64,000 nucleotides of DNA, from positions 68,635,676-68,699,675 of the forward strand of contig CAMGYJ010000006.1 of NCBI GenBank assembly GCA_946122785.1, in the 5' to 3' direction. A program made the position numbers and the translations under genes. Shown here piece by piece: positions 2,936 to 53,600 of the stretch (the first letter of the stretch is position 1; each line of letters opens with the position of its first letter). The notes under the pieces were generated by a model, which worked only from the letters and a program-made list of their open reading frames with translations, did not search any database and was not told the DNA's origin. The stretch is from Linum tenue (lineage: Eukaryota; Streptophyta; Magnoliopsida; Malpighiales; Linaceae).

Positions 2936-2949
2936 TCTTGTATTGAATA

Positions 2950-4170: not shown

Positions 4171-4175
4171 AGATG

Positions 4176-4580: not shown

Positions 4581-4817
4581 CAACTACAACTCCTACTATC
4601 CCTAAAAACTTACGTGGGTTGTTGGCTAGGCTCGAATTAAACCGCCGGACTTATCTATTTTTATCAGTAGATCATGCCTCCATAATTTTTGTTATTTAAT
4701 ACTTTCATTTATCGCCGATTTCTCTGATCGATCTTAACGACATTTCTACAAAGTTGTCATTTCTTATATCAATAGGGAATACAATCACGTAACAGTTTAT
4801 TGAGCTATTTAAGAATA

Positions 4818-5314
4818 GGGTTATAGGTATAATATGCCCCTCTACTATGATGTTCTATCAAACATGCCCCTCTACTATTTTTTACATCAAACATGCCCCT
4901 GTACTTTCAAAAAATTATCAAACATGTTCTTCTGTTAAAATTTTGATTGAAAAAATCGTCAATCATGGTTGAACCGATATTTAGACGACCCGACATCGAC
5001 AAATGGGAGGGAAAATGATAGTTTTGTCCCCCGTTTTATTCCTCTAAGTATCTTCAAAGTGAAATTATTTGAGTTATTTGGCTATACAGAAGAACCAAAA
5101 TAAATTCTAAAGTGAAATTATTAGGGATATTTTAGACATTTGTGTCGCCCAAACCAAAGTTCGGCATTGGTTAATGGTTTTTGGATGCAAATTTTAACAA
5201 AAGGGCATGTTTGATCATTTTTACAAAGTACAGGAGCATGTTTGATGTAAAAAATAGTAGAGGAGCATGTTTGATAAAACGTCATAGTAGAAGGACATAT
5301 TATACCTATAACCC
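4818..5314. mobile_element. Mutator-like MITE with long terminal inverted repeats
   Basis: The left end gggttataggtataatatg is repeated inverted at the right end, and the inverted homology continues inward for about 100 bp through repeated catgcccctctactat-type motifs. The element is flanked by a perfect 9-bp duplication, ttaagaata, at 4809-4817 and 5315-5323. Nine-base duplications and long TIRs are typical of the Mutator superfamily. No transposase is encoded, so it is non-autonomous. Confidence 0.85.
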
Positions 5315-5471
5315 TTAAGAATACTAGCCAAATGCTAGTAATTGTAATGACTCAAATCTTAGATACTAGTTAAACTATTGAACCCTGAATTATTATGATA
5401 ATTAGTATTTTTGGGCCGACTTTCACGTCTTATTTCTTTAAAGAACATACGGCCACCTACTCTTTTCAAAT

Positions 5472-8942: not shown

Positions 8943-9016
8943 CTACGCTAGCTTGTGTTTGGCTGCTGGTAATTAATTAACACTGGGAGCCCTGTGTTTC
9001 GAATATATAAGCAGGT

Positions 9017-9191
9017 TGTTATAAACGCGCTGCTACGGATCGAGAAATCGCTGGAATCGACAAAGCAAGACTACGAAAGCGAGAATCGAAAAACACGACA
9101 CACGATTTATGTGTGTTAGCTACGTCCACGGGCGAGAGACCCCCAATTACCAGTCGTAGCGGCTGATAGTCCGATTCAAGTCATATCAACA
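9017..9191 (-). repeat. 3' LTR of the copia element, internally deleted (175 bp)
   Basis: The first about 140 bp align with the other LTR. It lacks a short piece after gattta(c/t)gtg and most of the later portion, and its last part is unlike the partner until the shared tcatatcaaca end. An intact LTR would be 305 bp. Confidence 0.85.
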
Positions 9192-9285
9192 AATCTCCAC
9201 CTTGACTTGAATCCTCTTCCTCTGAAATCTCTGATGTACTCTGCTCCTTTTCTCTCTCCCGCCATCAATGCCCCGTAGGGCGGAG

Positions 9286-12200: not shown

Positions 12201-12471
12201 GCCTGACATCATTCACGGTACAGAACGAACCATCATGTGTCCGAACCTTTATGGACCCGATTCCAACAACCTTGCAGACAACTCCATTAGCCATGACCAC
12301 GTTACCACCATCTATCTGCTCGTAGGTTGTGAAGCAATCCCTGTTCGGAGACATATGATATGAGGCTGCAGTATCCAGAAACCACACATCACCACGATGT
12401 GCCTTCTCATCTACAGCCAAGGCGAGATCGTCTTCAGAACTGTTGTCCACTTCTGCCACGGCAACTGAACC
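9286..12471 (-). CDS. Copia Pol: protease, integrase, reverse transcriptase, RNase H
   Basis: About 1,060 codons in one open frame. Numbering from the first Met (12459), domains in order are: protease active site DTAAS at 29-33; GAG-pre-integrase/zinc finger HMRLGH..CEHC; integrase core with [21 protein letters not shown] and [10 protein letters not shown] (D,D,E set visible); the FFGCPVYYH and FVGYGDG region; a variable linker; reverse transcriptase with [11 protein letters not shown] and YVDDM; and RNase H with [15 protein letters not shown] and the KHIDVRYH end. The frame is continuous with gag upstream except for one TAA at 12472-12474. All catalytic motifs look present. Tnt1-like features are the gag start and the DTAAS protease. 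Confidence 0.95.
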
Positions 12472-13230
12472 TTATTTCTTCTGTTGCCCTCTTCTCTTGG
12501 GACAGTTGTACTTCCAATGCCCCACTTCCTTACAGTTGTGACAAGCATCACCTGGCTGTGGACCGGGACCCTTGGAATTCTTGCTCGAATTCCCTTTACC
12601 AGATTTCTTCTTTCCCTTTCCACCTGTAACAGCCAAACCCGATGCCTCACCAACTGTACCAGATCCGAACGCCTTATGCATGATCTCTCTCGTATGAAGA
12701 GCAGACCTGACATCCTCCAACGACACGCTTTCTTTACCAGCAATAAAAGAATCAACAAAATTCTCATATGAACTCGGCAAAGAAACCAGCAGGATTAGGG
12801 CAGCATCCTCGTCATCAACTTGAACATCTATATTACGCAGATCCAGCAAAATAGAGTTAAGTTGTTCGAGATGTTCCCTCAAAGGCGTACCTTCTTGCAT
12901 CCTCAAGCTGAACAACCGTTGCTTGAGATGCAACTTGTTGGTTAGAGACTTAGTCATGTACAGACTCTCTAGTTTCAACCACAAGCCCGCGGCAGTCTTC
13001 TCAGCAGCGACTTCAATGATGACGTCATCAGACAACGATAACATGATGGTCGAGTAGGCCTTCTCCTCCAGGGTATTCCACTCATCGTCATCGACCGCTG
13101 CCTTCTTCTGTTTCGCAGACAGCGGCCCCCACAGCCCTTGCTGTTTTAATAAAGCCTGCATCTTGATCTGCCATATAGCGAAGCTGTTCTTCCCCGTGAA
13201 CTTTTCGATCTTCATGTTCACCGACGTCAT
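12472..13230 (-). CDS. Copia Gag with CCHC zinc knuckle
   Basis: Frame of 252 residues starting MTSVNMKIEKFTGKNSF, followed by the typical copia gag pattern FAIWQIKMQALL (DUF4219/UBN2-like). The central YSTIMLSLSDDV..LESLYMTKSL region is characteristic of the UBN2 domain. The C-terminal knuckle CHNCKEVGHWKYNC gives a CCHC zinc site, followed by a basic tail. It lies in the same frame as pol. A TAA directly follows the basic tail, whereas Tnt1-type elements encode one Gag-Pol polyprotein, so this stop is probably a lesion. The nucleocapsid would package element RNA in cytoplasmic particles. Confidence 0.93.
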   Translation of the reverse strand: MTSVNMKIEKFTGKNSFAIWQIKMQALLKQQGLWGPLSAKQKKAAVDDDEWNTLEEKAYSTIMLSLSDDVIIEVAAEKTAAGLWLKLESLYMTKSLTNKLHLKQRLFSLRMQEGTPLREHLEQLNSILLDLRNIDVQVDDEDAALILLVSLPSSYENFVDSFIAGKESVSLEDVRSALHTREIMHKAFGSGTVGEASGLAVTGGKGKKKSGKGNSSKNSKGPGPQPGDACHNCKEVGHWKYNCPKRRGQQKK

Positions 13231-13269
13231 TCTTCTGAATCGAAAAACCTAGCCTGATTTCCCGCCGCG

Positions 13270-13281
13270 GCTCTGATACCA
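13270..13281 (-). promoter_or_regulatory. Primer binding site of the copia element
   Basis: On the minus strand this reads tggtatcagagc, complementary to the 3' end of initiator tRNA-Met. It lies 2 nt inside the 5' LTR, as in most plant copia elements. Confidence 0.92.
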
Positions 13282-13283
13282 CT

Positions 13284-13588
13284 TGTTATAAACGCGCTGC
13301 TACGGATCGGGAAATCACTGGAATCGACAAAGCAAGAATACGAAAGCGAGAATCGAAAAACACGACACACGATTTACGTGGTTCACTAACACGATGTGTG
13401 TTAGCTACGTCCACGGGAGAGAGAGAGCCAGTTTCACTATATCAAGGAGATTACAGATTACAGAGGAGTATGAGAAGTATTTATAGTACTTCTCCATGTG
13501 GGTCTAAACCTAATTCAATCTAACAAAGGAAACGGTTACAGACCAGACTCAGAATCCGAACCCAAATAACATTGAGCCCATATCAACA
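13284..13588 (-). repeat. 5' LTR of the copia element (305 bp)
   Basis: TG..CA ends (plus strand tgttataaac ... catatcaaca). On the minus strand a TATA-like actataaata lies inside (about 13479-13488), suitable for U3/R. It is the more complete of the two LTRs. Confidence 0.92.
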
Positions 13589-30059: not shown

Positions 30060-30420
30060 TCAACATATTGTCTTCAGGAAAGTCCATTCAACCCTATCAT
30101 AGACTTTGGTGATATCCAACTTTGCTGTCACAAACCCTTTCTTGTCTTCCTTCTTATTCTTTTATTGCGTGGAAGCATTTAAAAGCAACCACAACATTTT
30201 TCTTTTTGCGATGTTTCTGTCTGGTACAGTAGCGCTTTGCATGTCTGTCATCACAGTCTCAAAGATTTTTTCAATCATACACTTTGAATAGGATTTTGCA
30301 CATAACTTTGCATAAACTAATCGGTCTGAACTCTTTTGATCAGTTTGTGCTCTTTGTTTTTTGAGGAGCAGGGCTAGTAGGGTATGATATATAGATTGTC
30401 GGAATCACTCCTTGTAGAAA
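30060..30420 (-). pseudogene. LINE reverse-transcriptase fragment, antisense
   Basis: Minus-strand pieces read LQGVIPTIYIS, then KEFRPISLCKVMCKILFKV, then AKLDITKVYDRVEWTFLK. These are successive blocks of the LINE RT fingers/palm (compare DFRPIALCKVLYKILSKVL and AKLDIAKTYDRVEWAFLEG in the adjacent plus-strand LINE). The part between the FRPIS and AKLD blocks is deleted, and stops occur. It abuts the next LINE head to head. Confidence 0.75.
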
Positions 30421-30421
30421 A

Positions 30422-33400
30422 CCCCATAATTGGAATCCCACGACAGTTGCAAGAGTAGCTGCACTACTCAAAGAGCAAGACCCCAGCATAGTCTTCCTCA
30501 TGGAGACTAAGAAGCAAGAACACGAATGGGAAGAGACTGTCAAACAACTCGGATGGTCACAAGGGAAGGGTGTTGGATCACAAGGTAGAGCAGGAAGGCT
30601 GCTGCTCTTATGGACAGAGGAAATGCAAGTGACTGTGAAAAACTTAACCAGGAATTTCATTGATGTTTGGATTAGCAAAGGGACTGAAGGGAATCAGTGG
30701 CGGTTTACAGGAGTCTATGGGTGGCCTGAACAAGAAAATAAGCCACAGACTTGGGAAATGATCAGAAGGCTGCGTGAGCAACAAAATATGCCCTGGCTGG
30801 TCTGTGGGGATTTCAACCAAGTGCTTAGCTATGAAGAGAAGAATGGAGTTAATCCTCCAGATTTCCAAAACATGGAGGAATTCCAAACAACGATTGATGA
30901 ATGTCAGTTAGAGGATTTGGGATATTACGGCAATATGTTTACTTGGGATAATGGAAGGGTAGATGAAACCTTCCTAGAAGAAAGACTTGATAGAGCTTTA
31001 GCCAACTCAGAGTGGAAGGAGTGGTTTCCTGAAGCTAGAGTGTGTCATCTGGATAGGTAGGTTTCTGACCATCTACCAATAAAAGTGGAGCTGAATTTGC
31101 AGGAGGAGAAATTGAGATGGGGATGACATTTTAATTTTGAAGCTTATTGGCAGACTCATGAAGAGTGCTCTGCCATCATTGAAGCAGAATGGATAAAAGA
31201 TCCTGATAAGCCTCTGGAGGATAGGATCAAGGATTATGAGAAAGCTTTGTTGGAATGGAGCAAGAGGACTTTTGGTAGTCTAAGAGCTCGAAAAAAGAGG
31301 ATTGAGAAGGCTTTGGCCAAGATTGCTAAGCAAAGAAAGAACAAGGCAGTTCTACTGCAAAGAAGAGTGCTAGAAAAGGAACTAAACGAGGTCCTGCATC
31401 TTGAAGAGATTAGATGGAGGCAAAGATCTTGTACAGATTGGCTAAAGGAAGGGGACAAGAATACTGGGTTTTTCCATCGAAAAGCCTCAAACAGGCAGAA
31501 AAGGAACACAATTAAAGAATTGAGGGATGAGAATGGAATAGAGTTCAAAGGACATGAGGAGGTTATGAACTGTTTCTGGCAGTATTTGGATAAGCTATAC
31601 CAGAGAGGGCATATTCAAAACATGGATGATGTTTTTGCAGCAGTGGAGCCTAAAGTGACTCCCCAAATGAATCAAGAGCTTTTGGCTCCTTTTACTAGGG
31701 AGGAAATATGGGAAGCTGTAAAGTTAATGGCACCCACCAAAGCACCAGGCTCAGATGGGATGCCAACCCTTTTCTTCCAAAAGAATTGGGCAGTGGTTGG
31801 GGACACAGTTTGTATGGAGTTACAGAGAATCCTGATAACAGGTCATATTCCTCGATCTTTAAACCATACCCTGCTGGCTATGATTCCAAAGACTCAGAAG
31901 CCAAGTTCTCCTAAGGACTTTAGACCTATTGCACTATGCAAGGTACTGTACAAAATACTATCCAAAGTGCTGGCCAATAGGCTAAAGAGGATCTTAAATG
32001 AGGTGATCACTGAGACTCAGAGTGCCTTTGTTCCTGGAAGGAACATCACAGACAACATAATGTTCGGGTTTGAGTGTTTTCACGCCATGAAGAATAGAAA
32101 ACAAGGGAAGAAGGGGTATGTTGCAGCAAAACTGGACATAGCCAAGACATATGACAGGGTAGAATGGGCTTTCCTGGAGGGGATTATGCTTAAACTGGGA
32201 TTTCATGAAGACTGGGTTCAGTTAATTATGCAGTGTGTGTCTACTGTGACCTACTCTGCTTTAATAAATGGCCACCAAACAGCTATTATTCAACTAACAA
32301 GAGGTTTAAGACAGGGGGACCCTATATCCCCCTATCTCTTTCAGCTTTGTGCAGAAGGTTTGTCTGCTTTAACTAAAAAAGCAGTGGAGGAGGGGAGATT
32401 ACATGGGATAAAAGTGAGTAATAATGGCCCTATGATCACTCACCTCTTCTTTGCAGATGACAATATCTTTTTCTTTGAGAATAAGAAAGAAGAGGGTGAG
32501 ATGGTGAGGGATATTCTAAGCACCTATGAGAAAGCATCGGGACAACAAGTCAGCCTAGCCAAATCAGAACTATCTTTCAGCACAAATGTTGTGGACAGTG
32601 ACAGACAGGAGATGGCTGGAATCCTAGGCATGAAGACTGTCATGTTTCATGACAAGTATTTGGGCCTACCTACTGTAATTGGAAGGGCAAAAAAAGCTGT
32701 GTTTGCTCAGCTTATTGATAGAGTCCGAAACAAGATCAAACACTGGAAAGGAAAACTCCTATCTAATGCAGCTAAAGAGGTACTCATTAAAGCTGTGGCT
32801 CAATCTCAAACACTATATGCTATGTCAGTTTTCCTAATCCCTCAGGGGGTGATTCAGGAAATACAGAGTATGATTGCCAGCTTCTGGTGGGGAAAGAAAA
32901 GGGAGGAGAAAAGGATACACTGGATGAGTTGGGAAAAGCTGTGTCGACCTAAATATGAGGGAGGAATGGGATTTAGAAACCTCCATGGGTTCAATATAAT
33001 CCTTCTGGGAAGGCAGGTCTGGAATCTCTTACAAAATCCTAACACCCTAGTAGCTAGTGTTTTAAAGGCAAAATATTATCCTCATAGTGATGTACTGGAG
33101 GCTGAGATGGGTACAAACCCAAGCTACATCTGGAGAAGTTTAATGCAAGCTCAAAGTCTGGTTAGGGAGGGGACGAGATGGAGGATAGGAGATGGGGAAA
33201 GTGTACGAATCTGGTGGGATAGATGGATCCCAACAGCTGAGAACTACAAAGTTCAAACACAGGTGAATGGTTTGGGAATGATGGAGAGGGTGTCAAAATT
33301 GATTGATCATGAGAATCGGTCGTGGAAAAGCAATCTTTTGCAAGCAAATTTCGAACCAGTGGACCGAGATCGGATCAAACAAATACCACTTCCTTTCAGA

Positions 33401-34483
33401 TCAAGACCAGATGTTCGAATTTGGGGGAAGGAGAAATCTGGGAAGTATTCTGTGCGCTCGGGCTATAAAGAGTGGAGGAGACGATACTTAAACAGCCAGA
33501 TAGAGCACTATGTCCCCATCGATTGGAAACAGCTCTGGATGCTGAAACTACCTCCTAAGGTTCGAGTGTTTGTGTGGAGATGGGGTAGTAATATTCTACC
33601 TACGGGTGCAAATCTGAGCAGGAGAATTCCAGAGGCACACGATGAATGCCCATTTTGTGGTTTAGTAGAGACGCAAGAACATATCACGAGGGACTGCGAT
33701 TGGGTTGGAAGAGTATGGAGACCAAGTTATTTGGCGAAGTATTTTGAAATGGGAGAAGGGAAGAAGTGCGAGGAATGGCTCTGTAACCTAATGGAAGGAA
33801 CGACTGAGGAAGAACTTACTATGGTTCTGATTACCCTATGGTTTCTCTGGAAAGAGAGAAACAACCATCTATTCAACAACCACAAGCTGGAGGAGTGGGA
33901 AGTAGTGATGAGAGCGCAGAATTACCTGGAGGAATACCAGCAATTGCAAAAGGGCCCTGACCCGAAACCAAAGCTGTCGCCGATTAGGGTTGCATGGGAG
34001 CCTCCGCCTCAGGGATTCTACAAGATGAATACCGATGCGGCTGTGTTGGGAGAGGAGGGAACGGGTTTCGGGATGGTGATTAGAAATGGGGAGGGGACTT
34101 TTCAGATGGCGGCGATGCATCGAACAAGGACGAAATGGCCACCGGAGATGGCAGAAGCTCTTGCTCTCTTATGGGGTTTGAAATTGGCAAAAAGCCATGA
34201 TTTTGGGCCTCTAATTATGGAAACAGACTGCAAATCGGTGGTTCAGAAGCTGGATAGAAGGGATTCAACGGCATGGGAGATTGGGGGGATCTGTGATGAG
34301 ATTCGGGAACTGGCAGAGGAAGCTGGAAATGTGCAATGGAGATTCTGGGGGAGAAATGCGAATGAGTGTGCTCATCTGTTGGCTCGTACCCAATGTCGAC
34401 CGGATGAAACTGAAGTGTGGTTCAACCGAACCCCTAATTTTCTCATACCTCTTTTAGCAAAAGATGGCATTGTAGTACCTTAA
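30422..34483 (+). pseudogene. LINE ORF2: endonuclease, reverse transcriptase, zinc-binding, RNase H (two nonsense codons)
   Basis: One reading frame of about 1,350 codons broken only by TAG at 31058-31060 and TGA at 31124-31126. The endonuclease starts at NWNPTTVARVAALLK, having lost the usual SWNCRG start, and shows METKK, CGDFNQ and, after the first stop, SDHLPI. The RT shows APGSDGMP, FRPIALCKV, AFVPGRNITDN, KLDIAKTYDRVEW, GLRQGDPISPYLF and the FADD catalytic motif. The zf-RVT domain shows WKQLWMLKLPPKVRVFVW with CPFC and HITRDC. RNase H shows MNTDAA, PPEMAEALAL, METDC and the NECAHLLAR end. Not translatable as a whole without suppressing two stops. Confidence 0.92.
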
Positions 34484-38194: not shown

Positions 38195-41100
38195 TTACAA
38201 AAGGGGGGAAATAACATCTAGAATGGTAATCCATTCCGCTGGGAGCTGGTTCCTAACACAGGATCTAGCAACCCAGTCAGCTTTGGAGTTACCCTTGCGA
38301 TTGATCCAATCAAAACTGATGTTATGGAAACTGCTGGTGATGTCGATGATTCTTCCCAAGCAAGCTGCAGCTCGCCATGGCCAACCACTTGGGTGTCCTC
38401 TAAGGGCCTTAATAAGAGTAAGGCAATCAGAGTAAACCCGGCACGGGACATTCAGGTTCACCGCGTACAAGGCCCCCTTAAGAAGAGCAGAGGCTTCCGA
38501 TTCTATTGCAGAGTTGCAGTGCAGGTGCTCAGCCATCCCATCCACAACTTGACCATGGCCGTTCGTAACAACGACGCCATATGCCGCCTCCTGGGAATCG
38601 TGAAGATACGATCCATCACAGTGTACCTGCAAAGCGTGGGTACCTGGCGGTGGTAAGGTTGATTCAGGGGGTGAAACTGACTGAGGGTGGGGAGAGGACT
38701 TTCTGATTTTGGGGCAGGTTCGCCAGCGGTGGGCTTCCTCCATTGCGCGAGAAGCAGTAGCAAACGGCCCCGGGGCTTTATCCTTGAAGACTTTCTCGTT
38801 TCTTGCTTTCCAGGTTTGCCACAGAAGGTAGATGCAATTCTGGACCAGCTCGGCCGGCGCGTGGTTTGACATGGCATAGAGCCAATCAAGCACATTCGTA
38901 AGAGGTGGAGGAGTGCCCAGGTTTGGTAATATCAGATTCCAGCCAGCTTGTGCATGAGGGCATAAGAACAGGCAGTGGTGAGTAGACTCCTCTTGGTCAG
39001 CGCACACCGGGCAGGCCGAGGAGGTGGAGCATCTTCTGCCAAACAGATTGTGTTTCGTTGCCAGGGCCCCTCTTGAAGCTCGCCAGACAAAGTACTTCAT
39101 CTTTGGGGGTAGATGAAGCCCCCAAAGCCATTTCCATCTTTCTTTTGCAATATCCGGGAGGTGTAGCTCTTCTCCTCGATCCCTCCTCCATTGGTGGTGG
39201 AAGAGGTGAAACGCCGACCTGACCGTGAAGACGCCCTTGTCGTCATATCTCCACGCCCAATAATCCGTCATCGAGATGGGCCCGACCGGCGTTTTTGCCA
39301 CGTCCTGCATCTCCGACTGGCTAAGGTACTCCTGCAAAACATCAAATCGCCATTCTCTGGATATGGGGTCAATGAAGTCAGCAGTTGACTGGTTTGATCC
39401 ATTGCCATCCTGTCGCAGGGGTCCAGTTCGCATAAACAACCATGGGTCATGGAGGAGGCTTGTGTCTTTCCCGTTGTTAATGACTCTGATAATCCCTTTT
39501 TCCATCCATTGCCTTGCTTCCCAAATTCCTGACCAGATCCAAGAAGCCTTTCCCCCTTTCTTCGCTTTCGTGAACTCAGTTCTGGGAAAATACAAAGCCT
39601 TCAGAACTTTGACCCACAAAGCCTCCGGGTTCGTGAGAATGCGCCAAGCTTGTTTTGCAAGCAGAGCGAGATTGAATATGTGGAATGGTCTGAATCCCAG
39701 CCCTCCTTCGGATTTGTGAGCATAGAGAACTCTGCCTGCCTTCCAGTGGATGGATTTCTTTGAAAGTGACCCGCTCCAGAAGAATCTCTTGAGGAATGCA
39801 TCCATTTTGGTAGTCATCGATCGAGGGAGGAGAAACAAGCACATGATATAGGAAGGGACGGCTTGGAACACTGCTTTGAGAAGTGTCTCCTTCCCTCCTG
39901 GGGACAGCAATAGGCTCTTCCACGCTTCCCCTTTGGCTTCCAATCTTTGGATCAGGAATTGGAAAGTTTCTTTCTTCGATCTGCCCCAGTCAGTGGGTAC
40001 CCCCAGGTAATTTGAAGGTGCGTTGGAGCACTCGAAATTAATGGATAGAGCAATGATTCCTTTCTCCTCCTCCGTCACATTCTGACTGTAAAAGACGGAC
40101 GACTTTTCTCGGTTAACTTCCTGCCCTGTGATTGCACCATACGAGTCCAGAATACTCATAATAGCTTGAGCTTCTTGTGTTGAAGCTTCCCCGAAAATAA
40201 CTGTATCGTCAGCGAAAAGGCAGTGTGTCAAGAGGGGGCAGGTTCTGTTCAGCTTGATGCCCCTGATTTCCTGTTGCTGAACCGCCTTCTCTATAAGGAA
40301 AGAAAGGGAGTTTGACATGAGGATGAAGAGCAGAGGGGAAAGGGGATCCCCTTGTCTCAGACCTCTTGAAGGGGTGAATTCCGAAGAAGGCTCCCCATTC
40401 ACTAGCAACCGGAACTTGACTGTTGTGATGCAGGCCCTAATCCAAGAGCACCAGACCTGGGAGAACCCATACGCGTCCAAAAGGTTCAGTAGGAAGTCCC
40501 ACTCAACAAGGTCATAAGCTTTTCGCATGTCCAGCTTGAGCATCATGTCTTTGCGGGATCTAGTCCTGTTTTTTTTGAACTGATTCAAAACCTCATGGAC
40601 GATGATAATGTTATCCTGAATCTGTCTACCTCCTGTAAAGGCTGCTTGCAGTTCGTTCACCAGTCCGGGTAGCCATCTTTGCAATCTATTCGTCATGATT
40701 TTTGTGATTACCTTATACTTGAAATTGCAGCAGCTAATAGGCCGAAACTGGCCAATAGTCTCAGGGGTCTCCACTTTGGGGATGATGATGATGAAAGTTT
40801 CGTTCCAAGTATCTGGGATCACCTTTCTTCTGAAAAAATCGATGATCTCTTCACACAGTTGCTCCCCAATCAGGTTCCAGAATTTACGGAAGAAGAAGCC
40901 CTGGTAGCCATCAGGTCCGGGCGCCTTATTTGCTCCCAATTGGAAAACTGCCTTGCGTATCTCATTTGTGCTTATTTCTGCTGTGATATCGTCATTCATT
41001 TGGGGTGTCACCAGTCGAGGGAACCCGGCCAGGAGGTCGTGCTCGAAAGGTATCTCTTTGCTTGTGAAAAGACGTCGATAGAAAGTATTAATGTGGTGGT

Positions 41101-42250
41101 CCAGTTCTTGAGGGTCTTCAAGCCAAATGCCTTCCTCATTTTTCAGTTTCAAGATTCTGTTTCTGCTCTTCCTCTTGATGGTGCTTGCGTGGAAAAAACC
41201 CGTATTTTGGTCCCCCTCTTGAAGCCAGTTGTTTCTGGAAGTCTGTGCCCAGAATTCCTCCTCATTGTTCCATATTGCTGCGAGTTCCATTTGGAGATTT
41301 CCCTCCTCGTTGACCATCTCCTCAGTTCGAACCGGCCCTTGGACCTCCTGTATTCTAGTTTTTATCTCAGTTTCCCTTCTAAGCTTTCTGTTATAATCTC
41401 TACGAGCCCATTCTTGTAGTTCCCTTTGGCAGTCTCTCATCTTTTCCCCAATCTGTCCCTCTCTATTCCATCTACTTGTAATTATATGACAGCATTCATC
41501 ATTTTCTCTCCACCTTTTGTCGAATCTAAAAGGGGTGTTCCTGGCTTGATTCTTCGGGTGAAGATCAATTCTGATGGGGCAGTGGTCCGATTCCACAAAA
41601 TCTTCGTGGTAGACAACTGCCGATCCAAAACTCATCCTCCAAGATGTCGAACACAAGGCTCTATCCAGTCTCTCGCGAATGAGATTGTCCCCTTGTTGCT
41701 TGTTAGTCCAGGTAAACTGTTGGCCATTAAAACCCAGGTCCAAGAGAGCATTCTGCTCTATGAAATACTTGAAAGGGATCACATTCTCATTTCTCAGGGG
41801 GCATCGCCCCTGTTTTTCAAAAGGAAACAGAGCAACATTCAAGTCACCCAAAATCAGCCACTTCTCATCCCGAGCTTCCCTTAGGTTCGTAAGTCGTTCC
41901 CAAAGGCTTCTCCTCTCCACCGCCGTGGTTGGAGCATGGATGAAAGTACAAAAGAAAGATTCCCCATCCCTATCGATCCTAGTGTCCATGTAGGACTTAC
42001 ACACATCAAGAACCTGTAAATCAACTCCTTCTTTCCACAAAAGGGCCAAGCCGCTTCCTTCTGTTGACGGACTACAATACCTCGAGTGCTCCATCCTCAT
42101 TGCCCTCATCTTCCCTTCCATGAAAAGGTCTTCTTTTTTCGTCTCCATGAGGAATAGCACTGAGGGGCCAAATTTTCGGCAGAGCCTGCCACAATAGCCT
42201 CTTGTAAGGGGCTGGCCAAACCCCCTACAATTCCAGCTGATGATCCTCAT
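38195..42250 (-). CDS. LINE ORF2: APE-type endonuclease, reverse transcriptase, zf-RVT, RNase H
   Basis: 1,351 residues without interruption. The endonuclease (about 1-230) has SWNCRGFG, the catalytic Glu in METKK, GDLN and ESDHCPI. The RT (about 440-750) has APGPDGYQGFFF, FRPISCCN, AAFTGGRQIQDN, KLDMRKAYDLVEW, GLRQGDPLSPLLF and FADD. The zf-RVT domain has WKWLWGLHLPPKMKYFVW with CPVC and HHCLFLC. RNase H (about 1200-1340) has HCDGSY, ESEASAL, YSDC and NSKADWVA, giving the full acidic set. All catalytic motifs are present, so the protein looks functional. The start codon overlaps the ORF1 stop in an ATGA. Confidence 0.96.
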   Translation of the reverse strand: MRIISWNCRGFGQPLTRGYCGRLCRKFGPSVLFLMETKKEDLFMEGKMRAMRMEHSRYCSPSTEGSGLALLWKEGVDLQVLDVCKSYMDTRIDRDGESFFCTFIHAPTTAVERRSLWERLTNLREARDEKWLILGDLNVALFPFEKQGRCPLRNENVIPFKYFIEQNALLDLGFNGQQFTWTNKQQGDNLIRERLDRALCSTSWRMSFGSAVVYHEDFVESDHCPIRIDLHPKNQARNTPFRFDKRWRENDECCHIITSRWNREGQIGEKMRDCQRELQEWARRDYNRKLRRETEIKTRIQEVQGPVRTEEMVNEEGNLQMELAAIWNNEEEFWAQTSRNNWLQEGDQNTGFFHASTIKRKSRNRILKLKNEEGIWLEDPQELDHHINTFYRRLFTSKEIPFEHDLLAGFPRLVTPQMNDDITAEISTNEIRKAVFQLGANKAPGPDGYQGFFFRKFWNLIGEQLCEEIIDFFRRKVIPDTWNETFIIIIPKVETPETIGQFRPISCCNFKYKVITKIMTNRLQRWLPGLVNELQAAFTGGRQIQDNIIIVHEVLNQFKKNRTRSRKDMMLKLDMRKAYDLVEWDFLLNLLDAYGFSQVWCSWIRACITTVKFRLLVNGEPSSEFTPSRGLRQGDPLSPLLFILMSNSLSFLIEKAVQQQEIRGIKLNRTCPLLTHCLFADDTVIFGEASTQEAQAIMSILDSYGAITGQEVNREKSSVFYSQNVTEEEKGIIALSINFECSNAPSNYLGVPTDWGRSKKETFQFLIQRLEAKGEAWKSLLLSPGGKETLLKAVFQAVPSYIMCLFLLPRSMTTKMDAFLKRFFWSGSLSKKSIHWKAGRVLYAHKSEGGLGFRPFHIFNLALLAKQAWRILTNPEALWVKVLKALYFPRTEFTKAKKGGKASWIWSGIWEARQWMEKGIIRVINNGKDTSLLHDPWLFMRTGPLRQDGNGSNQSTADFIDPISREWRFDVLQEYLSQSEMQDVAKTPVGPISMTDYWAWRYDDKGVFTVRSAFHLFHHQWRRDRGEELHLPDIAKERWKWLWGLHLPPKMKYFVWRASRGALATKHNLFGRRCSTSSACPVCADQEESTHHCLFLCPHAQAGWNLILPNLGTPPPLTNVLDWLYAMSNHAPAELVQNCIYLLWQTWKARNEKVFKDKAPGPFATASRAMEEAHRWRTCPKIRKSSPHPQSVSPPESTLPPPGTHALQVHCDGSYLHDSQEAAYGVVVTNGHGQVVDGMAEHLHCNSAIESEASALLKGALYAVNLNVPCRVYSDCLTLIKALRGHPSGWPWRAAACLGRIIDITSSFHNISFDWINRKGNSKADWVARSCVRNQLPAEWITILDVISPLL

Positions 42251-44784
42251 GGTTGGGAAGGCGGCTTCTGGCTTGCCGCCGACGCCATCTGGAAGCTCGA
42301 TTCTCCCTCTCCTGACTGGTTTCCATCCGCATTAATCTCCCTGATGCTCCTTCTCCTAATCGAGTTCCTCTTTCTTGCATACCTCCTGATCTCCCCTCCT
42401 GTTGTAAAAGGCATAGATTCAACAGACATAAGGTTAGTAAAGATTTGTTGGGGTGCCGACTCGGTCTGTGATTCTCGGTGTTCTGGTTTCCTTTTTTTCT
42501 CCGGTCTGGTGGTGTTCTCCTCTGGTTCATCCGCGATCTGTATCCCTGGGCCCAGTTGAGAGGGTTGAGTAGCTAGTAGGGTGTTGGCCGGGCTCTGATG
42601 AAGGGGGAAACTGATCGGTTGGGCTCTCTGGTCTGGGTTCTGGGCTTCACCTCCTTGGGCCTGGGACATCTCCTGGAAAGGAAATGTTGGGCTGGCTAGG
42701 GATAGGGATTGGCCCATCTCCAGCAGGCCGGCCTGATCCTCCCTTGATGCTTTCTTCTTCCCCGACAGGTCCATCCCCCTTTGCATCGCCGCTGCGGCTA
42801 GGTCCACCTGCAACATCGCCACTTGCGACATGTTTGTGGGGCTGCTTCCCTCTCCTCTGAAAAGCCATTCTCCTTCTCTGTTGTTTCCATAGTTGTCGAT
42901 GGGCAGGGCAACAAACCCTGGCGGGCAGGAGGCTCGAGACTGTACTGGCTGACCCACCAGTGTCAGCAAGGACGATTCACCTCGGGATTTTGGCTGATGG
43001 CGGGCCCTCTGCTCGAGCATTGTGCTTTGTCTGACTCTGTCTTGTTTCTCCCGGAAAGAGGCCGGGGGGACGTTTTCCGGCGAATCATGGCCTGCCTTGA
43101 GAGCCGCCGTGTAGACTTCCGATGGGTCCGTACATAGACCCCTCCTCCTGTGATCTTCCCGCACCAGGCAGTTCTGGATGAGGTGACCCAGTTTGCCGCA
43201 AAAGTAGCAAAGATCAGTGATCCTCTCGTACTTGAAACTTACCCAGGTTGATCTCTCTCCCAGTGGGTATTCGAAGCCAATAGGGATAGGTTGACCCAGT
43301 TGGACTTCCACTTTAGCCCGGACGAATTTCAGCCATCCTCGGAATTCGAAGTTGGTGTTGTCGATTCCATGATACTGTGGGAATATAAACTCAGCAACCG
43401 CCTGGATGGATTCCTCGTCCTTCAGTGACTGAGGCAGATCGTGCATTTGCACCCACAGTGTGATAGTGTTGATATCTTCCAGCTCTGGTTTCTGTTCCCC
43501 GTCCCATTTTCTCATGGCTACCATGGTGTTCCCCAGTAGCCAAGGCCTAGCTTCCCAGACTGCATCTCTTTGCTTCATGGTTGGGAAGGAATAGATGAAG
43601 AGGTTATCCGCCTCTTTGGTGGCCTGGATTTCTCCATAAGCTCTCCATTTGTGGAAAGCCGTGTTTCTGGCTTTGTGTAGTGGGATATTTGCATCCGTCA
43701 CCCATCTACAAAGTAGCATTGGGATGCCGCTTTCTACTGTACCCACCACCTTTGGTCGAACGTTCAGGACCAGGTGGCTCTTCATTCCTCTCGAGCTTGA
43801 TGCACTCAGCTCCATTTCCGTTTGCTTTGCCGAGATAAGTGTGAGTAGGTAGGCTCTGGTTGTTGGGATTCTCTGAGGAGTTTGTGTTTGCTTTTCTGGG
43901 CTGTTGCTATCGAAAGGATTCGGTTGCTCTGGCCTTGCATGCATTATCCTCTTCTTATAGTGCCCTTTTGTCTGCCTCAAATGGGTTGTCCTTCTCGTGC
44001 TTGTCTCTGCTTTTTCTGGTAGTAAATGAGGTAGTTGGGAGGATCCTCCCTCTTTGAGTCTCCGTCCCTGTTCTCCTCTTAATTGCCTTTTCTGGTATGG
44101 GTTTTCTTCCCCAGGTAGCCGCCTATTGGCAGTTGAGTCTAACTGCGGGCTGCCTGGTGACTGCTCTGCTCCCACTCGCTGATTTAATGCACTCCCCTCC
44201 TTCATTCTCTGGGGGTTGTATCTGGGTGTAATTGTGTGGGTAGCCATAGCGGTAATGATTGGTAGATCCTGCTCCCAGATCTTTTCCAGGGGCTGGATCC
44301 GTGGGCATTTACTCCATGGGACACCTTTTTCCTGTTGTTCCTGCACATAGGCATTACATCCTCCCCCTCTTTGCTTGCTCTTAGTCTCCTTTCTGTCTGG
44401 TGCTTCCAAGCTTCTTATTCCTCCTCTCTCTTCCTTGCTGTTCGACTGATCAGGTGGCTTCGGTTGTAGATCTTCTGATTTCCCCTGGCGTGCCCGATCT
44501 CTGGCCTTCCTTCTCCCTGATTGGGTACCCAGAGAGGGGGCTTCCTCTGTCCTTGAAACCCCCCTTCCATAAATGCTCCCCTGATCTTTCTTGATCTTCC
44601 TCACTTCCTTCTGACATTGGTGATTAATGGCGATTCCATTTTGATTTTGGCGTATGTCAACGCCCTGAATTCTGAATGCTCCGAAAGCGGCAGCTGGTGA
44701 GAAAAAAAGAGAGAGCGATGAGAGGGTAGAGAGAGACACCATTTGAGTTGCACTACAAGTCCCTTGCTCGATCCAAAAGGGCAA
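42247..44784 (-). CDS. LINE ORF1: Gag-like nucleic-acid-binding protein (DUF4283, CCHC knuckle)
   Basis: Open frame of 845 residues. The N-terminal third is basic and low-complexity. The true start may be a later Met, since the first ATG lies only 4 nt from the element's 5' border; candidates include the Met near residue 323 (MELSAS). The DUF4283-type domain spans about 335-480 (HKWRAYGEIQ, LFIYSFPTMKQRDAVWEARPW, LWVQMHDLP). The zinc knuckle CYFCGKLGHLIQNC is near 525. A long charged, Gln/Pro-rich C-terminal region follows. It would coat LINE RNA in the RNP. Its stop codon TGA (42249-42247) overlaps the ORF2 start. Confidence 0.9.
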   Translation of the reverse strand: MPFWIEQGTCSATQMVSLSTLSSLSLFFSPAAAFGAFRIQGVDIRQNQNGIAINHQCQKEVRKIKKDQGSIYGRGVSRTEEAPSLGTQSGRRKARDRARQGKSEDLQPKPPDQSNSKEERGGIRSLEAPDRKETKSKQRGGGCNAYVQEQQEKGVPWSKCPRIQPLEKIWEQDLPIITAMATHTITPRYNPQRMKEGSALNQRVGAEQSPGSPQLDSTANRRLPGEENPYQKRQLRGEQGRRLKEGGSSQLPHLLPEKAETSTRRTTHLRQTKGHYKKRIMHARPEQPNPFDSNSPEKQTQTPQRIPTTRAYLLTLISAKQTEMELSASSSRGMKSHLVLNVRPKVVGTVESGIPMLLCRWVTDANIPLHKARNTAFHKWRAYGEIQATKEADNLFIYSFPTMKQRDAVWEARPWLLGNTMVAMRKWDGEQKPELEDINTITLWVQMHDLPQSLKDEESIQAVAEFIFPQYHGIDNTNFEFRGWLKFVRAKVEVQLGQPIPIGFEYPLGERSTWVSFKYERITDLCYFCGKLGHLIQNCLVREDHRRRGLCTDPSEVYTAALKAGHDSPENVPPASFREKQDRVRQSTMLEQRARHQPKSRGESSLLTLVGQPVQSRASCPPGFVALPIDNYGNNREGEWLFRGEGSSPTNMSQVAMLQVDLAAAAMQRGMDLSGKKKASREDQAGLLEMGQSLSLASPTFPFQEMSQAQGGEAQNPDQRAQPISFPLHQSPANTLLATQPSQLGPGIQIADEPEENTTRPEKKRKPEHRESQTESAPQQIFTNLMSVESMPFTTGGEIRRYARKRNSIRRRSIREINADGNQSGEGESSFQMASAASQKPPSQP

Positions 44785-44801
44785 AGTTTAACTGCTTTTT
44801 T

Positions 44802-49566: not shown

Positions 49567-50482
49567 CAGCCTAGTTATTCTGCTAACTTGAAAATTCGTT
49601 AGTATATACTAACTAATATCCAAAATGTATGAACTAATATCCAAGTCTGCTGAGTATCTAGATAGCACAGACTAGTATTCTAAACATTACAAACTAGTAT
49701 CCAGATAGCAGATACCAACTAATATCCACAATCAACCAACTAGTATTCAATATGGATACTCTTATGTGTTATTTGGATACTTTTATGCGTTATCTGAATA
49801 CTAATTATGTTCTATATGAATACTATTCTGTGTTGTCTAGATATTAGTTTGTGAATTTGAGATAATAGTTGATGCATGGTGGATATCAGTTAGCAAACTT
49901 TAAATACTAGTCTGTGCTCTCTAGATACTTTAATACTTGGATACTAGTTCATATATTTTGGATATCAGTTAGTATCTGCTAACGAATTTTCAAGTTAGCA
50001 GATTAACTTTTCCCCTCAGGTGATACCATTTCCTGGGAAAAGTTAATCTGCTAACTTGAAAATTTGTTAGCAGATACTAACTGATATCCAAAATACATGA
50101 ACTAGTATCCAAGTACTAAAGTATCTAGAGAGCATAAACTAGTATTCAAAGTTTGCTAACTGATATCCACCATGAATCAACTATTATCCCAAATTCACAA
50201 ACTAATATCTAGACAACACAGAATAGTATCAATACAACACATAATTAGTATCCAGATAACCCATAAGAATATCCAGATAACACATAATAGTATCCATATT
50301 GAATACTAGTTGGTTGATTGTGGATATTAGTTGGTATCTGCTATCTGGATACTAGTTTGTGATGTTTTGAATACTAGTCTGTGCTATCTAGATACTCAAC
50401 ATACTTGGATATTAGTTCATACATTTTGGATATTAGTTAGTATATACTAACGAATTTTCAAGTTAGCAGAATAACCAGGCTG
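49567..50482. mobile_element. 916-bp palindrome: two inverted 434-bp foldback units
   Basis: Unit 1 (49574-50007) and unit 2 (50042-50475) are both 434 bp and are near-identical inverted copies, separated by a 34-bp spacer. Each unit also has its own terminal inverted repeats (gttattctgctaacttgaaa at one end; ttcaagttagcagattaac at the other). The interior is built of recurring actagtatccaga / ggatactagt motifs. The outermost cagcct.gttattctg repeats extend the palindrome by 7 bp on each side. No coding capacity. No clear TSD. Probably a MITE or foldback element that was duplicated in inverted form. Confidence 0.85.
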
Positions 50483-50555
50483 TCGCCTGAGTCCCACTTT
50501 AGCGGAAAAAGATAAATCTTCTTAACTGGAAATCTGGAATGGGCAGATGGCGCCA

Positions 50556-50924
50556 TGTTAGAAACAAAGTTTCTAACGGGTCTCTATTTCAGATCTAGAG
50601 ATTGAGAATTTAGGGTTTATAGAACAGAATTGGGGATTTAGGGATTTGAAGAGAATTTGGGGAAGAACAGAAGAGAATCGGCCTAAGCCTTTGAGGGATT
50701 GAGGTCAAGAATTGAGAGGATTGGGATAGGAATTTAGGGAGATAATTCTTTATTAACTTCTGCTTAATCTGACGAATGACCCAAAGTACATATATATAGA
50801 GAAATACTAGAAAACCCTAATACTAAACCTAATTCTACTAGAAAACTACTAACCATAATAAGAATTACCCTAATAATGATTATAATAATAAATATAGAAA
50901 CCCGATATAATTCGGTTTCTAACA
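50556..50924 (-). repeat. 3' LTR (369 bp)
   Basis: tgttagaaacaaag ... cggtttctaaca, with the inner inverted ttagaaac/gtttctaa at the termini. Identical to the other LTR by eye. On the minus strand the frame of the orphan protein runs into it and stops at 50764. Confidence 0.95.
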
Positions 50925-53151
50925 TCTCCTCCCCCTTCAAACCAACCTTGTCCTCAAGGTTGACCGTCTTAACCCACGTCTTCTTAATTCTCGCGCGCTC
51001 TGTGTGTACACTGTGTCGTTTCTTACGCTTTCTTTTCTTCCAATTTCGTTCGAGGTTACAAGCGCCTCCATTAAAAGCATCTCCAGCTTCCATCGATCCT
51101 CCTTCTGCCAAGAAGTGCATATCATCATTACCACGACCACGATCACGATCAAATGAGTCCCTGTTCCTCACTTCAAACTTCATCAAATAATTCCACCTTC
51201 TCGTTGATCCAAAAACACCTTTTAGCATAGGATCTATCATCTTCCTTTCGACAAAGATGATGACTTTTTCACATCCAGTACCCACTCCCCATCCTTGTGA
51301 TTTTACTTCTATGGTGAAGCTATCAGCCCTCGAATCACCTCCTCGAGCTTGCCACCCAAGCTTGAGCTGTGCATTATTTCCACCAACTCTTATAGTGAGT
51401 CTTGAGTCCGTACTCACTAGCTCCTTAAATTCTCCATCAGTGGTGCCTTCTCTAACTTTTGTCCATCTCGCCTCTATCTCCCACATTCGGCGGTACTCCC
51501 TGGGCCCTCGGCAATGAACTGGTTGCAGGGATGCATGGTTCATGTGATTGAGCTTTGAATTGAAAACCAAAACTCCAACTCCTTCCCTTTGGCTCGACCC
51601 CCGACGGCTTGTCCACGCATTCCGATCATACTGGTCATAAAAGAATGCATTCGTTGAGCTCCACCTGTTCCCTTGCCCGCTCGGATTTGGAGCAGCCACT
51701 TCACCGCTGGACTCCTCTCCCGATAACCCAGCATCCATCCAAATTGAATTCATAAATTGTTCCTCATCCAAAGAACCTCCACCTTCGCCCCAAGCTGTGA
51801 ATTGCAAGTTTTGCCTATTATAGATCCCCAGCCCCCAAAGAGAGCCCCAGTTACACCCTTCCTGGCTATGAAACTCCATCACCTCCATATCCCTTCCAAA
51901 CTTCCCATTCATCACAAATAGCGAGGCTGTGTAATTCCCACTAGTTTTAGAAGTCAACATGGCATTTACGTACTTACAAACCAGCTGTAGGAATCTCTTC
52001 TTTAGCCAATGGTGTTGCCGATTTGGAGATTCCTTCCATTCATCGTTTGACATCCCTACCGCCAGCAGTACCCAGTGAGGCAATTGCAGTTCGCGCCCAC
52101 CCACGATTTGCGACGACACGGTCACAAGGGACAGGAGGTCGTCGAATGATGGCGTTGGCCACGGTGGCAAGGTGACATGTAGTCTGAGTGGTGCGGCAGC
52201 TCTGGTCACCGACTCGTTGGGCGACGATGTCGCAGCCGTCCCCAGGATTGCTTCGTGAGAGACGGATGCAGCGGTCTTTCCAATCCACAGGATGTCGCTT
52301 TTCGTTTGCGATTGTTCGGTTAACAACCCTTTTTGGTCTTTCTCCGACCCGCCAACGAGTTCAGCAGGGGCGTTAGTGATTGCCCAACCGTCCTTCTCCT
52401 TCTCCGGCAGAGCTTTATCCTCCAACAACTTCCGCCTTTGTTTCTTCTTCTTCTTTCTAAATTTCCAACTCCAAATGGCAGCCGCTCCAATTTTAATTCC
52501 AAAATCACCTCCCAAAGCAAACTCATCATGATATTTCTTTGCGGCGGCGTTTGGTGATATTGCAGCAGCTTTTATGTAGGATAGTGCTGCAGGAATGGTG
52601 GTCACGGCTGAAACGACGCCGACGGCTGGGGGTTTCTCCTCTGACGTGGGTTGTTCTGCTGGTAGCTTCGCGACAACCATCTTATCGATGCCCACAGCTA
52701 TGGCGGGAAAGGCAACATTGGCAGAAAGCTCCGATCGACGGGGAATCGCGCCTCGCGTCAGAGGGGACTCCGCGCCGTCCTCCGCTTCCCCGTTGACCTC
52801 CATTGCCGACGCTGAAGGAAAAGTAGCAGCAGCTGTCGATGTCGTGGAGGGCAACGTTTGGGACGCCGCCTCGGCTGTCATCGCCGGCGCACCAGGTGGT
52901 GGCTCGACCGCCGCCTTCCTTTTGCGCGCTAGCATCACCAGATCAAGCGCGTCGATTGCTTCTTGCAGCAGTTGTTGGATTTGAACCCACTCCTGATCTG
53001 AGAGCTGTGACGAGCTCATGTCGGCGACTCGGGTCATCGTCTCTGCTTGCATGGTCGGCGACTCTTCGGAGCTCCAACGGCGTCCGATGCGGCGAGCCCG
53101 GTCACGCAGCTCTGCCCACGACAGGTTCGAGAGCTTTGAAGAGCTCATCAT
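50764..53151 (-). CDS. Orphan 795-residue protein of the LTR element
   Basis: Not recognised. The start MMSSSKLS lies about 60 nt after the primer site. Two similar openings occur, SSSKLSNLSWAEL near residue 3 and SSSQLSDQEWVQI near residue 46, followed by a probable helix (LLQEAIDALDLVML). An Ala/Pro/Ser-rich linker (about 75-220) follows. A basic patch FRKKKKKQRRKL lies near 233. A middle region with LHVTLPPWPTPSFDDLLSLV and RELQLPHWVLLAVGM has several Trp residues and looks folded. Gly-rich sequence and a second basic patch (NWKKRKRKKRH) near 690 come next, then LEDKVGLKGEEML over the polypurine tract. The last about 53 residues are encoded by the LTR and are hydrophobic. There is no zinc knuckle and no polymerase motif. 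It could be a divergent Gag or captured host sequence. The uninterrupted frame suggests selection or youth. Confidence 0.75.
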   Translation of the reverse strand: MMSSSKLSNLSWAELRDRARRIGRRWSSEESPTMQAETMTRVADMSSSQLSDQEWVQIQQLLQEAIDALDLVMLARKRKAAVEPPPGAPAMTAEAASQTLPSTTSTAAATFPSASAMEVNGEAEDGAESPLTRGAIPRRSELSANVAFPAIAVGIDKMVVAKLPAEQPTSEEKPPAVGVVSAVTTIPAALSYIKAAAISPNAAAKKYHDEFALGGDFGIKIGAAAIWSWKFRKKKKKQRRKLLEDKALPEKEKDGWAITNAPAELVGGSEKDQKGLLTEQSQTKSDILWIGKTAASVSHEAILGTAATSSPNESVTRAAAPLRLHVTLPPWPTPSFDDLLSLVTVSSQIVGGRELQLPHWVLLAVGMSNDEWKESPNRQHHWLKKRFLQLVCKYVNAMLTSKTSGNYTASLFVMNGKFGRDMEVMEFHSQEGCNWGSLWGLGIYNRQNLQFTAWGEGGGSLDEEQFMNSIWMDAGLSGEESSGEVAAPNPSGQGNRWSSTNAFFYDQYDRNAWTSRRGSSQREGVGVLVFNSKLNHMNHASLQPVHCRGPREYRRMWEIEARWTKVREGTTDGEFKELVSTDSRLTIRVGGNNAQLKLGWQARGGDSRADSFTIEVKSQGWGVGTGCEKVIIFVERKMIDPMLKGVFGSTRRWNYLMKFEVRNRDSFDRDRGRGNDDMHFLAEGGSMEAGDAFNGGACNLERNWKKRKRKKRHSVHTERARIKKTWVKTVNLEDKVGLKGEEMLETELYRVSIFIIIIIIRVILIMVSSFLVELGLVLGFSSISLYICTLGHSSD
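50925..50938 (-). promoter_or_regulatory. Polypurine tract of the LTR element
   Basis: On the minus strand this reads gaagggggaggaga directly before the 3' LTR. It is a textbook plus-strand primer. Confidence 0.9.
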
Positions 53152-53212
53152 CGCACCAGTTGTAGAACTCGTCCCCGGTTGAGAGTTGTGGTGAACTCAA
53201 TTCTCGAACCGG

Positions 53213-53224
53213 GCTCTGATACCA
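53213..53224 (-). promoter_or_regulatory. Primer binding site of the LTR element
   Basis: On the minus strand this reads tggtatcagagc, complementary to initiator tRNA-Met, the same primer as the copia element at 9017-13588. Confidence 0.93.
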
Positions 53225-53226
53225 AA

Positions 53227-53595
53227 TGTTAGAAACAAAGTTTCTAACGGGTCTCTATTTCAGATCTAGAGATTGAGAATTTAGGGTTTATAGAACAGAA
53301 TTGGGGATTTAGGGATTTGAAGAGAATTTGGGGAAGAACAGAAGAGAATCGGCCTAAGCCTTTGAGGGATTGAGGTCAAGAATTGAGAGGATTGGGATAG
53401 GAATTTAGGGAGATAATTCTTTATTAACTTCTGCTTAATCTGACGAATGACCCAAAGTACATATATATAGAGAAATACTAGAAAACCCTAATACTAAACC
53501 TAATTCTACTAGAAAACTACTAACCATAATAAGAATTACCCTAATAATGATTATAATAATAAATATAGAAACCCGATATAATTCGGTTTCTAACA
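53227..53595 (-). repeat. 5' LTR (369 bp)
   Basis: Base-for-base equal to 50556-50924 in my reading, implying very recent insertion or recent gene conversion. On the minus strand a TATA-like ctatatatatg is present in it, suitable as promoter. Confidence 0.95.
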
Positions 53596-53600
53596 CGCCA

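What the first reader, a model, noticed from the sequence alone, without database searches (positions are those of the whole stretch)
50556..53595. LTR retrotransposon with identical LTRs carrying only an unrecognised 795-residue protein
The element has every cis-feature of a competent retrotransposon: 369-bp LTRs without a visible difference, a perfect cgcca TSD, a tRNA-Met primer site and a clean polypurine tract. Yet it encodes neither a recognisable Gag nor any Pol domain. It is too long for a typical TRIM, and unlike typical LARDs its interior is one uninterrupted frame. The protein has basic patches, a duplicated SSSxLS N-terminal motif and a hydrophobic C terminus encoded by the LTR. 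It may be a new class of non-autonomous element with a diverged Gag or a captured gene, mobilised by a copia helper that uses the same primer site.
Basis: partly seen in the sequence, partly recalled or inferred. Interest (0 to 1): 0.82.

Follow-up and report, generated by a model that had tools for sequence, protein, structure and literature searches.

The report
Mosaic-protein LTR retrotransposon family in flax relative
A short jumping element in a flax-like plant carries no recognisable retroelement gene but one long protein, and it belongs to a large family whose recently moved members carry different patchwork versions of that protein, parts of which look conserved by selection.

Summary
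In detail: a 3,040-bp element with identical 369-bp LTRs, CGCCA target duplication, iMet-type primer site, polypurine tract, one 795-codon frame, and no Pfam Gag or Pol. It is not a lone oddity. In its own 692-Mb genome the LTRs and both internal ends recur, mostly at 81-96% identity, around quite different interiors. Other elements with fresh LTR pairs also carry one long frame (359-839 aa). The protein is a mosaic: two N-terminal modules, an interior and a C-terminal module, each found in other elements of the family, around a private 345-residue centre. The N- and C-modules show protein-level constraint (pN/pS 0.28; dN/dS 0.56-0.63, upper limits just below 1); one further comparison (0.60) does not exclude neutrality. 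Long open frames go with young LTRs. The family shares primer site, 3' hairpin and PPT region with Gag-only Ty3/gypsy elements, and one locus combines both kinds, so a Ty3/gypsy rather than copia helper is likely. No Pol donor was found; protein function is inferred. Closest precedent: maize Bs1. Best reading: Gag- and Pol-less LTR elements with a modular, partly constrained, probably cis-useful protein, mobilised in trans. New variant of a known kind.

The parts
53596..53600 (.). target-site duplication CGCCA (right copy)
50551..50555 (.). target-site duplication CGCCA (left copy)
53227..53595 (-). 5' LTR (369 bp; TATATATA at LTR 127, AATAAA at 171)
50556..50924 (-). 3' LTR, identical to the 5' LTR
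53213..53224 (-). primer-binding site TGGTATCAGAGC (tRNA-iMet type by recall)
50925..50938 (-). polypurine tract
50943..50962 (-). hairpin CAACCTTG-AGGA-CAAGGTTG, also codes NLEDKV; same motif in the Gag-only bodies of L036 and L047
50764..53151 (-). single 795-codon ORF ending inside the 3' LTR
53020..53148 (-). N-module 1 (residues 2-44), MSSSKLSNLSWAELRDRARRIGRRW type; 16 DNA-selected copies, no stop in 29 codons, pN/pS 0.28
52906..53025 (-). N-module 2 (residues 43-82), SSSQLSDQEWVQIQQLLQ type as in L031 and L034
52435..52911 (-). interior module (residues 81-239), related to L019-L025; ends with the WKFRKK motif (residues 229-234)
51400..52434 (-). private centre (residues 240-584): no relative found except two short DNA matches (79 and 38 bases) at or in its edge
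50947..51399 (-). C-module (residues 585-735) shared with L026-L028; dN/dS 0.56-0.63
51019..51042 (-). basic motif WKKRKRKK (residues 704-711), recurring in the family

Best explanation
It is a recently inserted member of a large family of Gag- and Pol-less LTR retrotransposons in a Linum-type genome. The LTR drives an RNA (inferred) that carries a primer site, PPT and 3' hairpin like those of Ty3/gypsy Gag-bearing elements, so it is packaged, reverse-transcribed and integrated by proteins supplied in trans (inferred). Its one gene encodes a mosaic protein: N-terminal helix module(s), a variable middle often with a W[KR]FRKK motif, and a C-terminal W[KR]KRKR basic motif followed by NLE[DG]K. 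Modules have been reshuffled between subfamilies (shown), most simply by template switching between co-packaged RNAs (inferred). The N- and C-modules look constrained as protein (shown on small samples), so the protein probably helps the RNA that encodes it, for example by binding that RNA, bringing it to the particle, or bringing the preintegration complex to the nucleus (inferred).
For: Anatomy and TSD. Family ends around swapped interiors. Module map. Young relatives keep a long frame: longest open frame covers at least 0.97 of the primer-site-to-3'LTR interval in 8 of 10 elements with LTR pairs at least 99.5% identical (the other two 0.59, 0.58) and at least 0.90 in 3 of 10 older ones; Mann-Whitney p = 0.0016. 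C-module v L026/L027/L028: 150 codons, dN/dS 0.63/0.59/0.56, bootstrap upper limits 0.96/0.91/0.86; no stop and no frame-breaking gap at about 30% DNA divergence; no stop in 144 codons has P = 0.006 in a simple neutral simulation. N-module in 16 copies picked by DNA alone: 0 of 16 with a stop in 29 codons, pS 0.215, pN 0.059, ratio 0.28. Composite L036 joins a Gag-bearing Ty3/gypsy body and an ORF-only body between LTRs that match L038's at 93%. L047 is a Gag-only element with identical 383-bp LTRs, TSD ccgcc and the same primer site and 3' hairpin.
Against: No Pol-bearing partner found; no expression data. L026, L027 and L028 are close to each other, so the three C-module ratios are one observation in effect. 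L027 v L028 over 479 contiguous codons gives 0.60 with interval 0.28-1.41, and L026 v L028 and L026 v L027 also include 1; the 0.40 came from an identity-filtered alignment with mismatched ends and is not relied on. N-module codons 14-29 alone give 0.57. The 24 codons around NLEDKV, although picked by that peptide, give 0.83. Relatives of the 81-239 module are broken in the compared stretch in 6 of 7 loci. Open frames in young copies are partly expected from age alone. Structure models were uninformative.
Confidence: 0.62

Rival explanations
1. The protein is a patchwork that includes captured host-gene fragments, as in maize Bs1; it is carried along and need not act for the element.
For: Private centre of 345 residues without relatives in the family; capture by LTR elements is documented (PMC13317346 section 5; PMC3726574 abstract); flax has many LTR elements with host-gene or unidentifiable interiors (PMC3544724 section 13).
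Against: No match by Pfam, in the protein collection for residues 300-735 (only proteins of 437-1391 aa were candidates), or in the own genome by DNA; other modules are shared within the family, two of them apparently constrained.
Confidence: 0.18
2. An ordinary deletion derivative (TRIM/LARD-like) whose frame is open only because the insertion is young.
For: Identical LTRs; most older copies have broken frames; interiors vary freely; L027 v L028 does not exclude neutrality.
Against: 757 open codons against a shuffle maximum of 351; coding codon usage; no stop or frame-breaking gap in the C-module at 30% DNA divergence; N-module pN/pS 0.28.
Confidence: 0.14
3. A strongly diverged Gag: the elements supply their own particle protein and only borrow Pol.
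For: N-terminal helices, long disordered middle and C-terminal basic motif recall Gag layout (inference).
Against: No Pfam or PDB match; hhalign to one copia and one gypsy gag 0.11% and 0.06%; a separate Gag-only family with the same primer site and 3' hairpin exists.
Confidence: 0.06

Closest known systems
Bs1 of maize
   Same: LTR element with a hybrid frame built of several pieces (transduced segments described in PMC13317346 section 5; its shortness, lack of Pol and ORF length are recalled)
   Different: Bs1's pieces come from named host genes; here the pieces that can be traced lie in other elements of the same family, and several elements, not one, carry such a frame
TR-GAG elements (definition recalled)
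   Same: Non-autonomous LTR elements with one frame; the Gag-only element L047 and the Gag body of L036 look like TR-GAGs and share primer site and 3' hairpin with ours
   Different: This element's protein is not Gag by any test made
TRIM and LARD elements
   Same: LTR, PBS, PPT, no gag/pol, thought to be mobilised in trans
   Different: TRIMs are small and without coding capacity (PMC4717578 passages), LARDs have long non-coding interiors (recalled); here one long, partly constrained frame
Undetermined LTR elements of flax (PMC3544724)
   Same: LTR elements with unidentifiable interiors, 32 of them with identical LTRs
   Different: Section 13 and the passages I saw do not describe a shared protein, modules or selection

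Membership tests
LTR retrotransposon (non-autonomous) | paired LTRs, PBS, PPT, TSD | tested here: met
LTR retrotransposon (non-autonomous) | no recognisable Gag/Pol of its own | tested here: met
   positive controls
TRIM | very small, no coding capacity | tested here: not met
   3,040 bp, 795-codon coding frame
LARD | large non-coding conserved interior (recalled) | tested here: not met
   one open frame fills the interior; interior not conserved
TR-GAG | single ORF with a Gag domain (recalled) | tested here: not met
Bs1-type gene-capturing element | segments traceable to host genes | tested here: inconclusive
   none found; protein-level genome search did not complete
Ty1/copia-mobilised element | LTR or ends shared with a copia element | tested here: inconclusive
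   no similarity to the copia at 9016-13424 of the window apart from the primer site; other copias of the genome not tested
Ty3/gypsy-mobilised element | ends shared with a Gag-Pol Ty3/gypsy element | tested here: inconclusive
   shared with Gag-only Ty3/gypsy bodies L036 and L047; no Pol-bearing copy seen

The most novel reading that the evidence does not exclude
A plant retroelement lineage has discarded both gag and pol and keeps instead one new kind of gene: a hypervariable, modular, cis-acting protein with conserved terminal motifs that is traded in pieces between subfamilies and is selected because it helps its own RNA exploit Ty3/gypsy particles, a gene of a retroelement's parasite.
Probability: 0.36. 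Interest if true: 0.82.

Novelty: new variant of a known kind. Interest (0 to 1): 0.62.

Why it matters
Parasites of retrotransposons are usually thought of as non-coding (TRIM, LARD) or as Gag carriers. A large young family that keeps a long non-Gag, non-Pol protein, partly constrained and rebuilt by module exchange, would make testable the question what such an element gains from coding at all, and would be a natural source of new plant proteins.

Tried and rejected
Diverged Gag: Pfam, PDB profile and hhalign negative. LINE ORF1 relation: hhalign 0.12%. Structured RNA: no Rfam match at E <= 1; leader and 3' folds not clearly beyond shuffles (z -1.46, -0.73, 1.32, -0.99). Structure prediction: residues 300-735 alone mean pLDDT 32, whole protein with 5 sequences 38, confident only in N-terminal helices and the LTR-coded tail, so no fold search was made. 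Plasmid records: no match. Papers: searches on Linum non-autonomous elements, LARD ORFs, gene capture, Bs1, TR-GAG and hypervariable ORFs and the 3' motif as letters (0 papers); in the listings I saw no description of this family, but I read only the sections and passages named in the report.

Errors found on checking: the 'intact' flag was wrong for L040 and for L001 (this element, intact); L045, flagged intact, is an odd recombinant without the NLEDKV end. I rely on the open-fraction measure, over the 20 elements where the script found an LTR pair of 250-480 bp next to a primer site. Dropped by that filter although some LTR pair was seen: L002, L004, L005, L007, L019, L029, L031, L042; of these L042 (LTRs 96.8%) has a 377-codon open frame from the N-module into LTR sequence. 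The dN/dS of 0.40 for L027 v L028 rested on an identity filter and mismatched ends; the contiguous comparison gives 0.60, interval 0.28-1.41. The N-module ratio used copies picked by peptide; one search repeats it with copies picked by DNA. Because of these two mends I lowered confidence from 0.68 to 0.62 and the novel case from 0.40 to 0.36.
Full report
OBSERVATION. The element lies on the minus strand at 50556-53595. The two 369-bp LTRs do not differ, CGCCA flanks both ends, TGGTATCAGAGC follows the 5' LTR after two bases and GAAGGGGGAGGAGA precedes the 3' LTR. The ORF has 795 codons, starts 75 bases after the 5' LTR and stops 161 bases into the 3' LTR; in the LTR, AATAAA stands at position 171. 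Inside the LTRs 757 codons are open; 1000 dinucleotide shuffles gave a mean of 164 and a maximum of 351. Codon usage scored 0.077 in this frame, within the range of ten frames of the window used as controls (-0.029 to 0.135; nine of the ten have a Pfam match, the tenth was not scanned), against a null of -0.047 +/- 0.017. In six of seven 100-codon windows this frame scored best of the six frames; in the second window one reverse frame was level (-0.063 v -0.068), and the first two windows score no better than the null.

IDENTITY OF THE PROTEIN. Pfam gave nothing above noise, whereas gag, integrase and reverse-transcriptase frames of other elements in the window scored 8.6e-13 to 9.9e-73. The protein collection gave four relatives, all annotated in Linum trigynum, three and one more (P0001-P0004); they share mainly the first 35-44 residues with ours. 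Only proteins of about 437-1391 aa could be found. A search with residues 300-735 found none at E <= 1 among 4918 candidates. The window is probably from a Linum species (inference).

FAMILY IN THE OWN GENOME. The genome search answered: the window lies on contig C6 of a 692-Mb assembly. Of 1973 candidates 40 were scored, giving 56 matches. Only this copy matches in full. Most others match the two ends (LTR plus about 120 bases on the 3' side, LTR plus about 200 bases on the 5' side); pieces longer than 350 bases are 81-96% identical. A search with the interior alone (21 of 21 candidates scored) found pieces at 20 other places: the DNA of residues about 95-234 at 88-91% at seven places plus a 61-base piece, the C-terminal module at 69-70% at three places, and short pieces. 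I fetched 9.5 kb around each of the 20. In 19 of 20 the stretch also holds sequence related to our LTR or ends (not L035; weak in L034). In 13 of 20 a self-comparison showed an LTR-like pair at that place; in L021, L022, L024, L025, L033, L035 and L037 it did not. So the traceable parts of the interior lie with related LTR sequence; I saw none in a host gene, but the loci carry no annotation.

OTHER ELEMENTS WITH A LONG FRAME. L027 (LTRs 406 bp, 100% identical; 839 aa), L028 (100%; 694), L032 (100%; 703), L038 (100%; 408), L046 (100%; 359), L043 (99.7%; 359) and L006 (99.7%; 472) each hold one frame from near the primer site into the 3' LTR, as does the older L040 (98.9%; 406). L043 and L046 are 99% alike and count as one lineage. 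Their LTRs are 74-92% like ours where they align; L027's LTR did not align with ours. Five-base TSDs are visible at L026, L027, L028, L032, L038 and L040, and at L043 and L046 once their cut ends are shifted by a base; L006 could not be judged because its locus ends there. Pfam found no family above its cut-off in the long frames of L026, L027, L028, L032 and L038. Among the 20 elements with an LTR pair next to a primer site, the longest open frame covers at least 0.97 of the interior in 8 of 10 with LTRs at least 99.5% identical, and at least 0.90 in 3 of 10 below that (p = 0.0016, Mann-Whitney; rows dropped are named under Tried and rejected). Age alone contributes to this, so it is supporting, not decisive.

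MOSAIC. The 795-aa protein divides into residues 2-44 (as in L032, L043 and others; 93%), 43-82 (as in L031 and L034), 81-239 (L019 type; 75%), 240-584 (no relative at E <= 1e-3 among the held loci), 585-735 (L026-L028; 41-53%) and an end from about residue 724 found in 32 or more of the held loci (some loci overlap). The SSSxLS 'duplication' is thus two N-terminal modules of different subfamilies joined in frame; by eye L027 likewise holds two N-type modules, and it has two WKFRKK motifs. Of the ten frames flagged intact, W[KR]FRKK is in six (this element, L027, L028, L032, L043, L046), W[KR]KRK in seven (this element, L006, L027, L028, L032, L038, L040) and NLE[DG]K in nine (not L045).

SELECTION. 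C-module against L026, L027, L028: about 30% DNA divergence, no stops, no frame-breaking gaps, dN/dS 0.63, 0.59, 0.56 over 150 codons, bootstrap upper limits 0.96, 0.91, 0.86; these three relatives are close to each other, so this is one observation in effect. N-module, 16 copies picked by DNA: no stop in 29 codons in any, pS 0.215, pN 0.059, ratio 0.28, and 0.57 for codons 14-29; pairs are not independent. Against: L027 v L028 over 479 contiguous gap-free codons 0.60, interval 0.28-1.41; L026 pairs 0.56 and 0.66 with intervals that include 1; 24 codons around NLEDKV 0.83; the 81-239 module has ratios of 0.33-0.62 but is broken by stops or frame-breaking gaps in 6 of 7 relatives. Protein-level constraint is thus indicated for the two ends and the C-module, unproven for the middle, and untestable for the private centre.

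HELPER. L036 is a composite: LTR of the L038 type (93%), primer site, a frame with Retrotrans_gag (1.7e-13), hairpin and PPT region, an LTR like that of L047, a second primer site, an ORF-only body 97% like L038, and the first LTR type again. A query with its LTR-to-gag start had 40 scored matches of 1341 candidates; besides L036 itself, 30 run from the end of U5 into gag at 83-96% and nine match the LTR only. One of the 30, L047, is a complete element with 383-bp identical LTRs, TSD ccgcc, a Gag-type interior without Pol (1.9e-13; one in-frame TAG in this copy), and the same primer site and AACCTTGAGGACAAGGTTG hairpin as ours (3' end 77% over 86 bases). So the family shares cis signals with, and in one case is combined with, Gag-only Ty3/gypsy elements. 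No Pol-bearing partner was identified; the protein-level genome searches did not complete.

LITERATURE. Flax was reported to hold many LTR elements with unidentifiable interiors, 32 with identical LTR pairs (PMC3544724, passages, section 13). Gene capture and Bs1: PMC13317346 section 5 and passages, PMC7264820 passages, PMC3726574 abstract. TRIMs: PMC4717578 passages. Retand antisense ORFs: PMC11963269 passages. Linum genomes: PMC12371154 passages. TR-GAG papers: search listing only. The original Bs1 papers were not read (not held); Bs1's size and ORF length are recalled.

MECHANISM. Shown: anatomy, family, mosaicism, indications of protein-level constraint at the N- and C-modules, one combination with a Gag-bearing element. 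Inferred: transcription, trans-packaging by Ty3/gypsy proteins, module exchange by template switching, and a cis-useful protein whose basic motifs bind RNA or direct nuclear import.

Noticed in passing
49567-50482: 916-bp near-perfect palindrome (93% to its own reverse complement), ending 73 bp from the element's LTR
   Followed up: no
9016-13424: copia element with short LTR-like ends (84.5% alike), the same type of primer site, and gag and pol frames in one frame separated by one stop codon
   Followed up: partly
30395-34483 and 38195-44787: two L1-type LINEs with endonuclease, RT and RNase H-like domains, the second with a DUF4283/zinc-knuckle ORF
   Followed up: partly
L036, minus strand, sense positions 1449-5947: composite LTR element joining a Gag-only body and an ORF-only body between matching LTRs
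   Followed up: yes
L047 149-3168: young Gag-only (TR-GAG-like) element; 16 scored places match its relative L036 at 95-96% from U5 into gag
   Followed up: partly
L002 1022-2026: two LTR copies of the family abut head to tail (element sense 2552-3040, then 51-576), as in tandem elements or an LTR-LTR junction
   Followed up: no
L045: recombinant copy whose 3' boundary is another LTR copy without the usual 3' internal end
   Followed up: no
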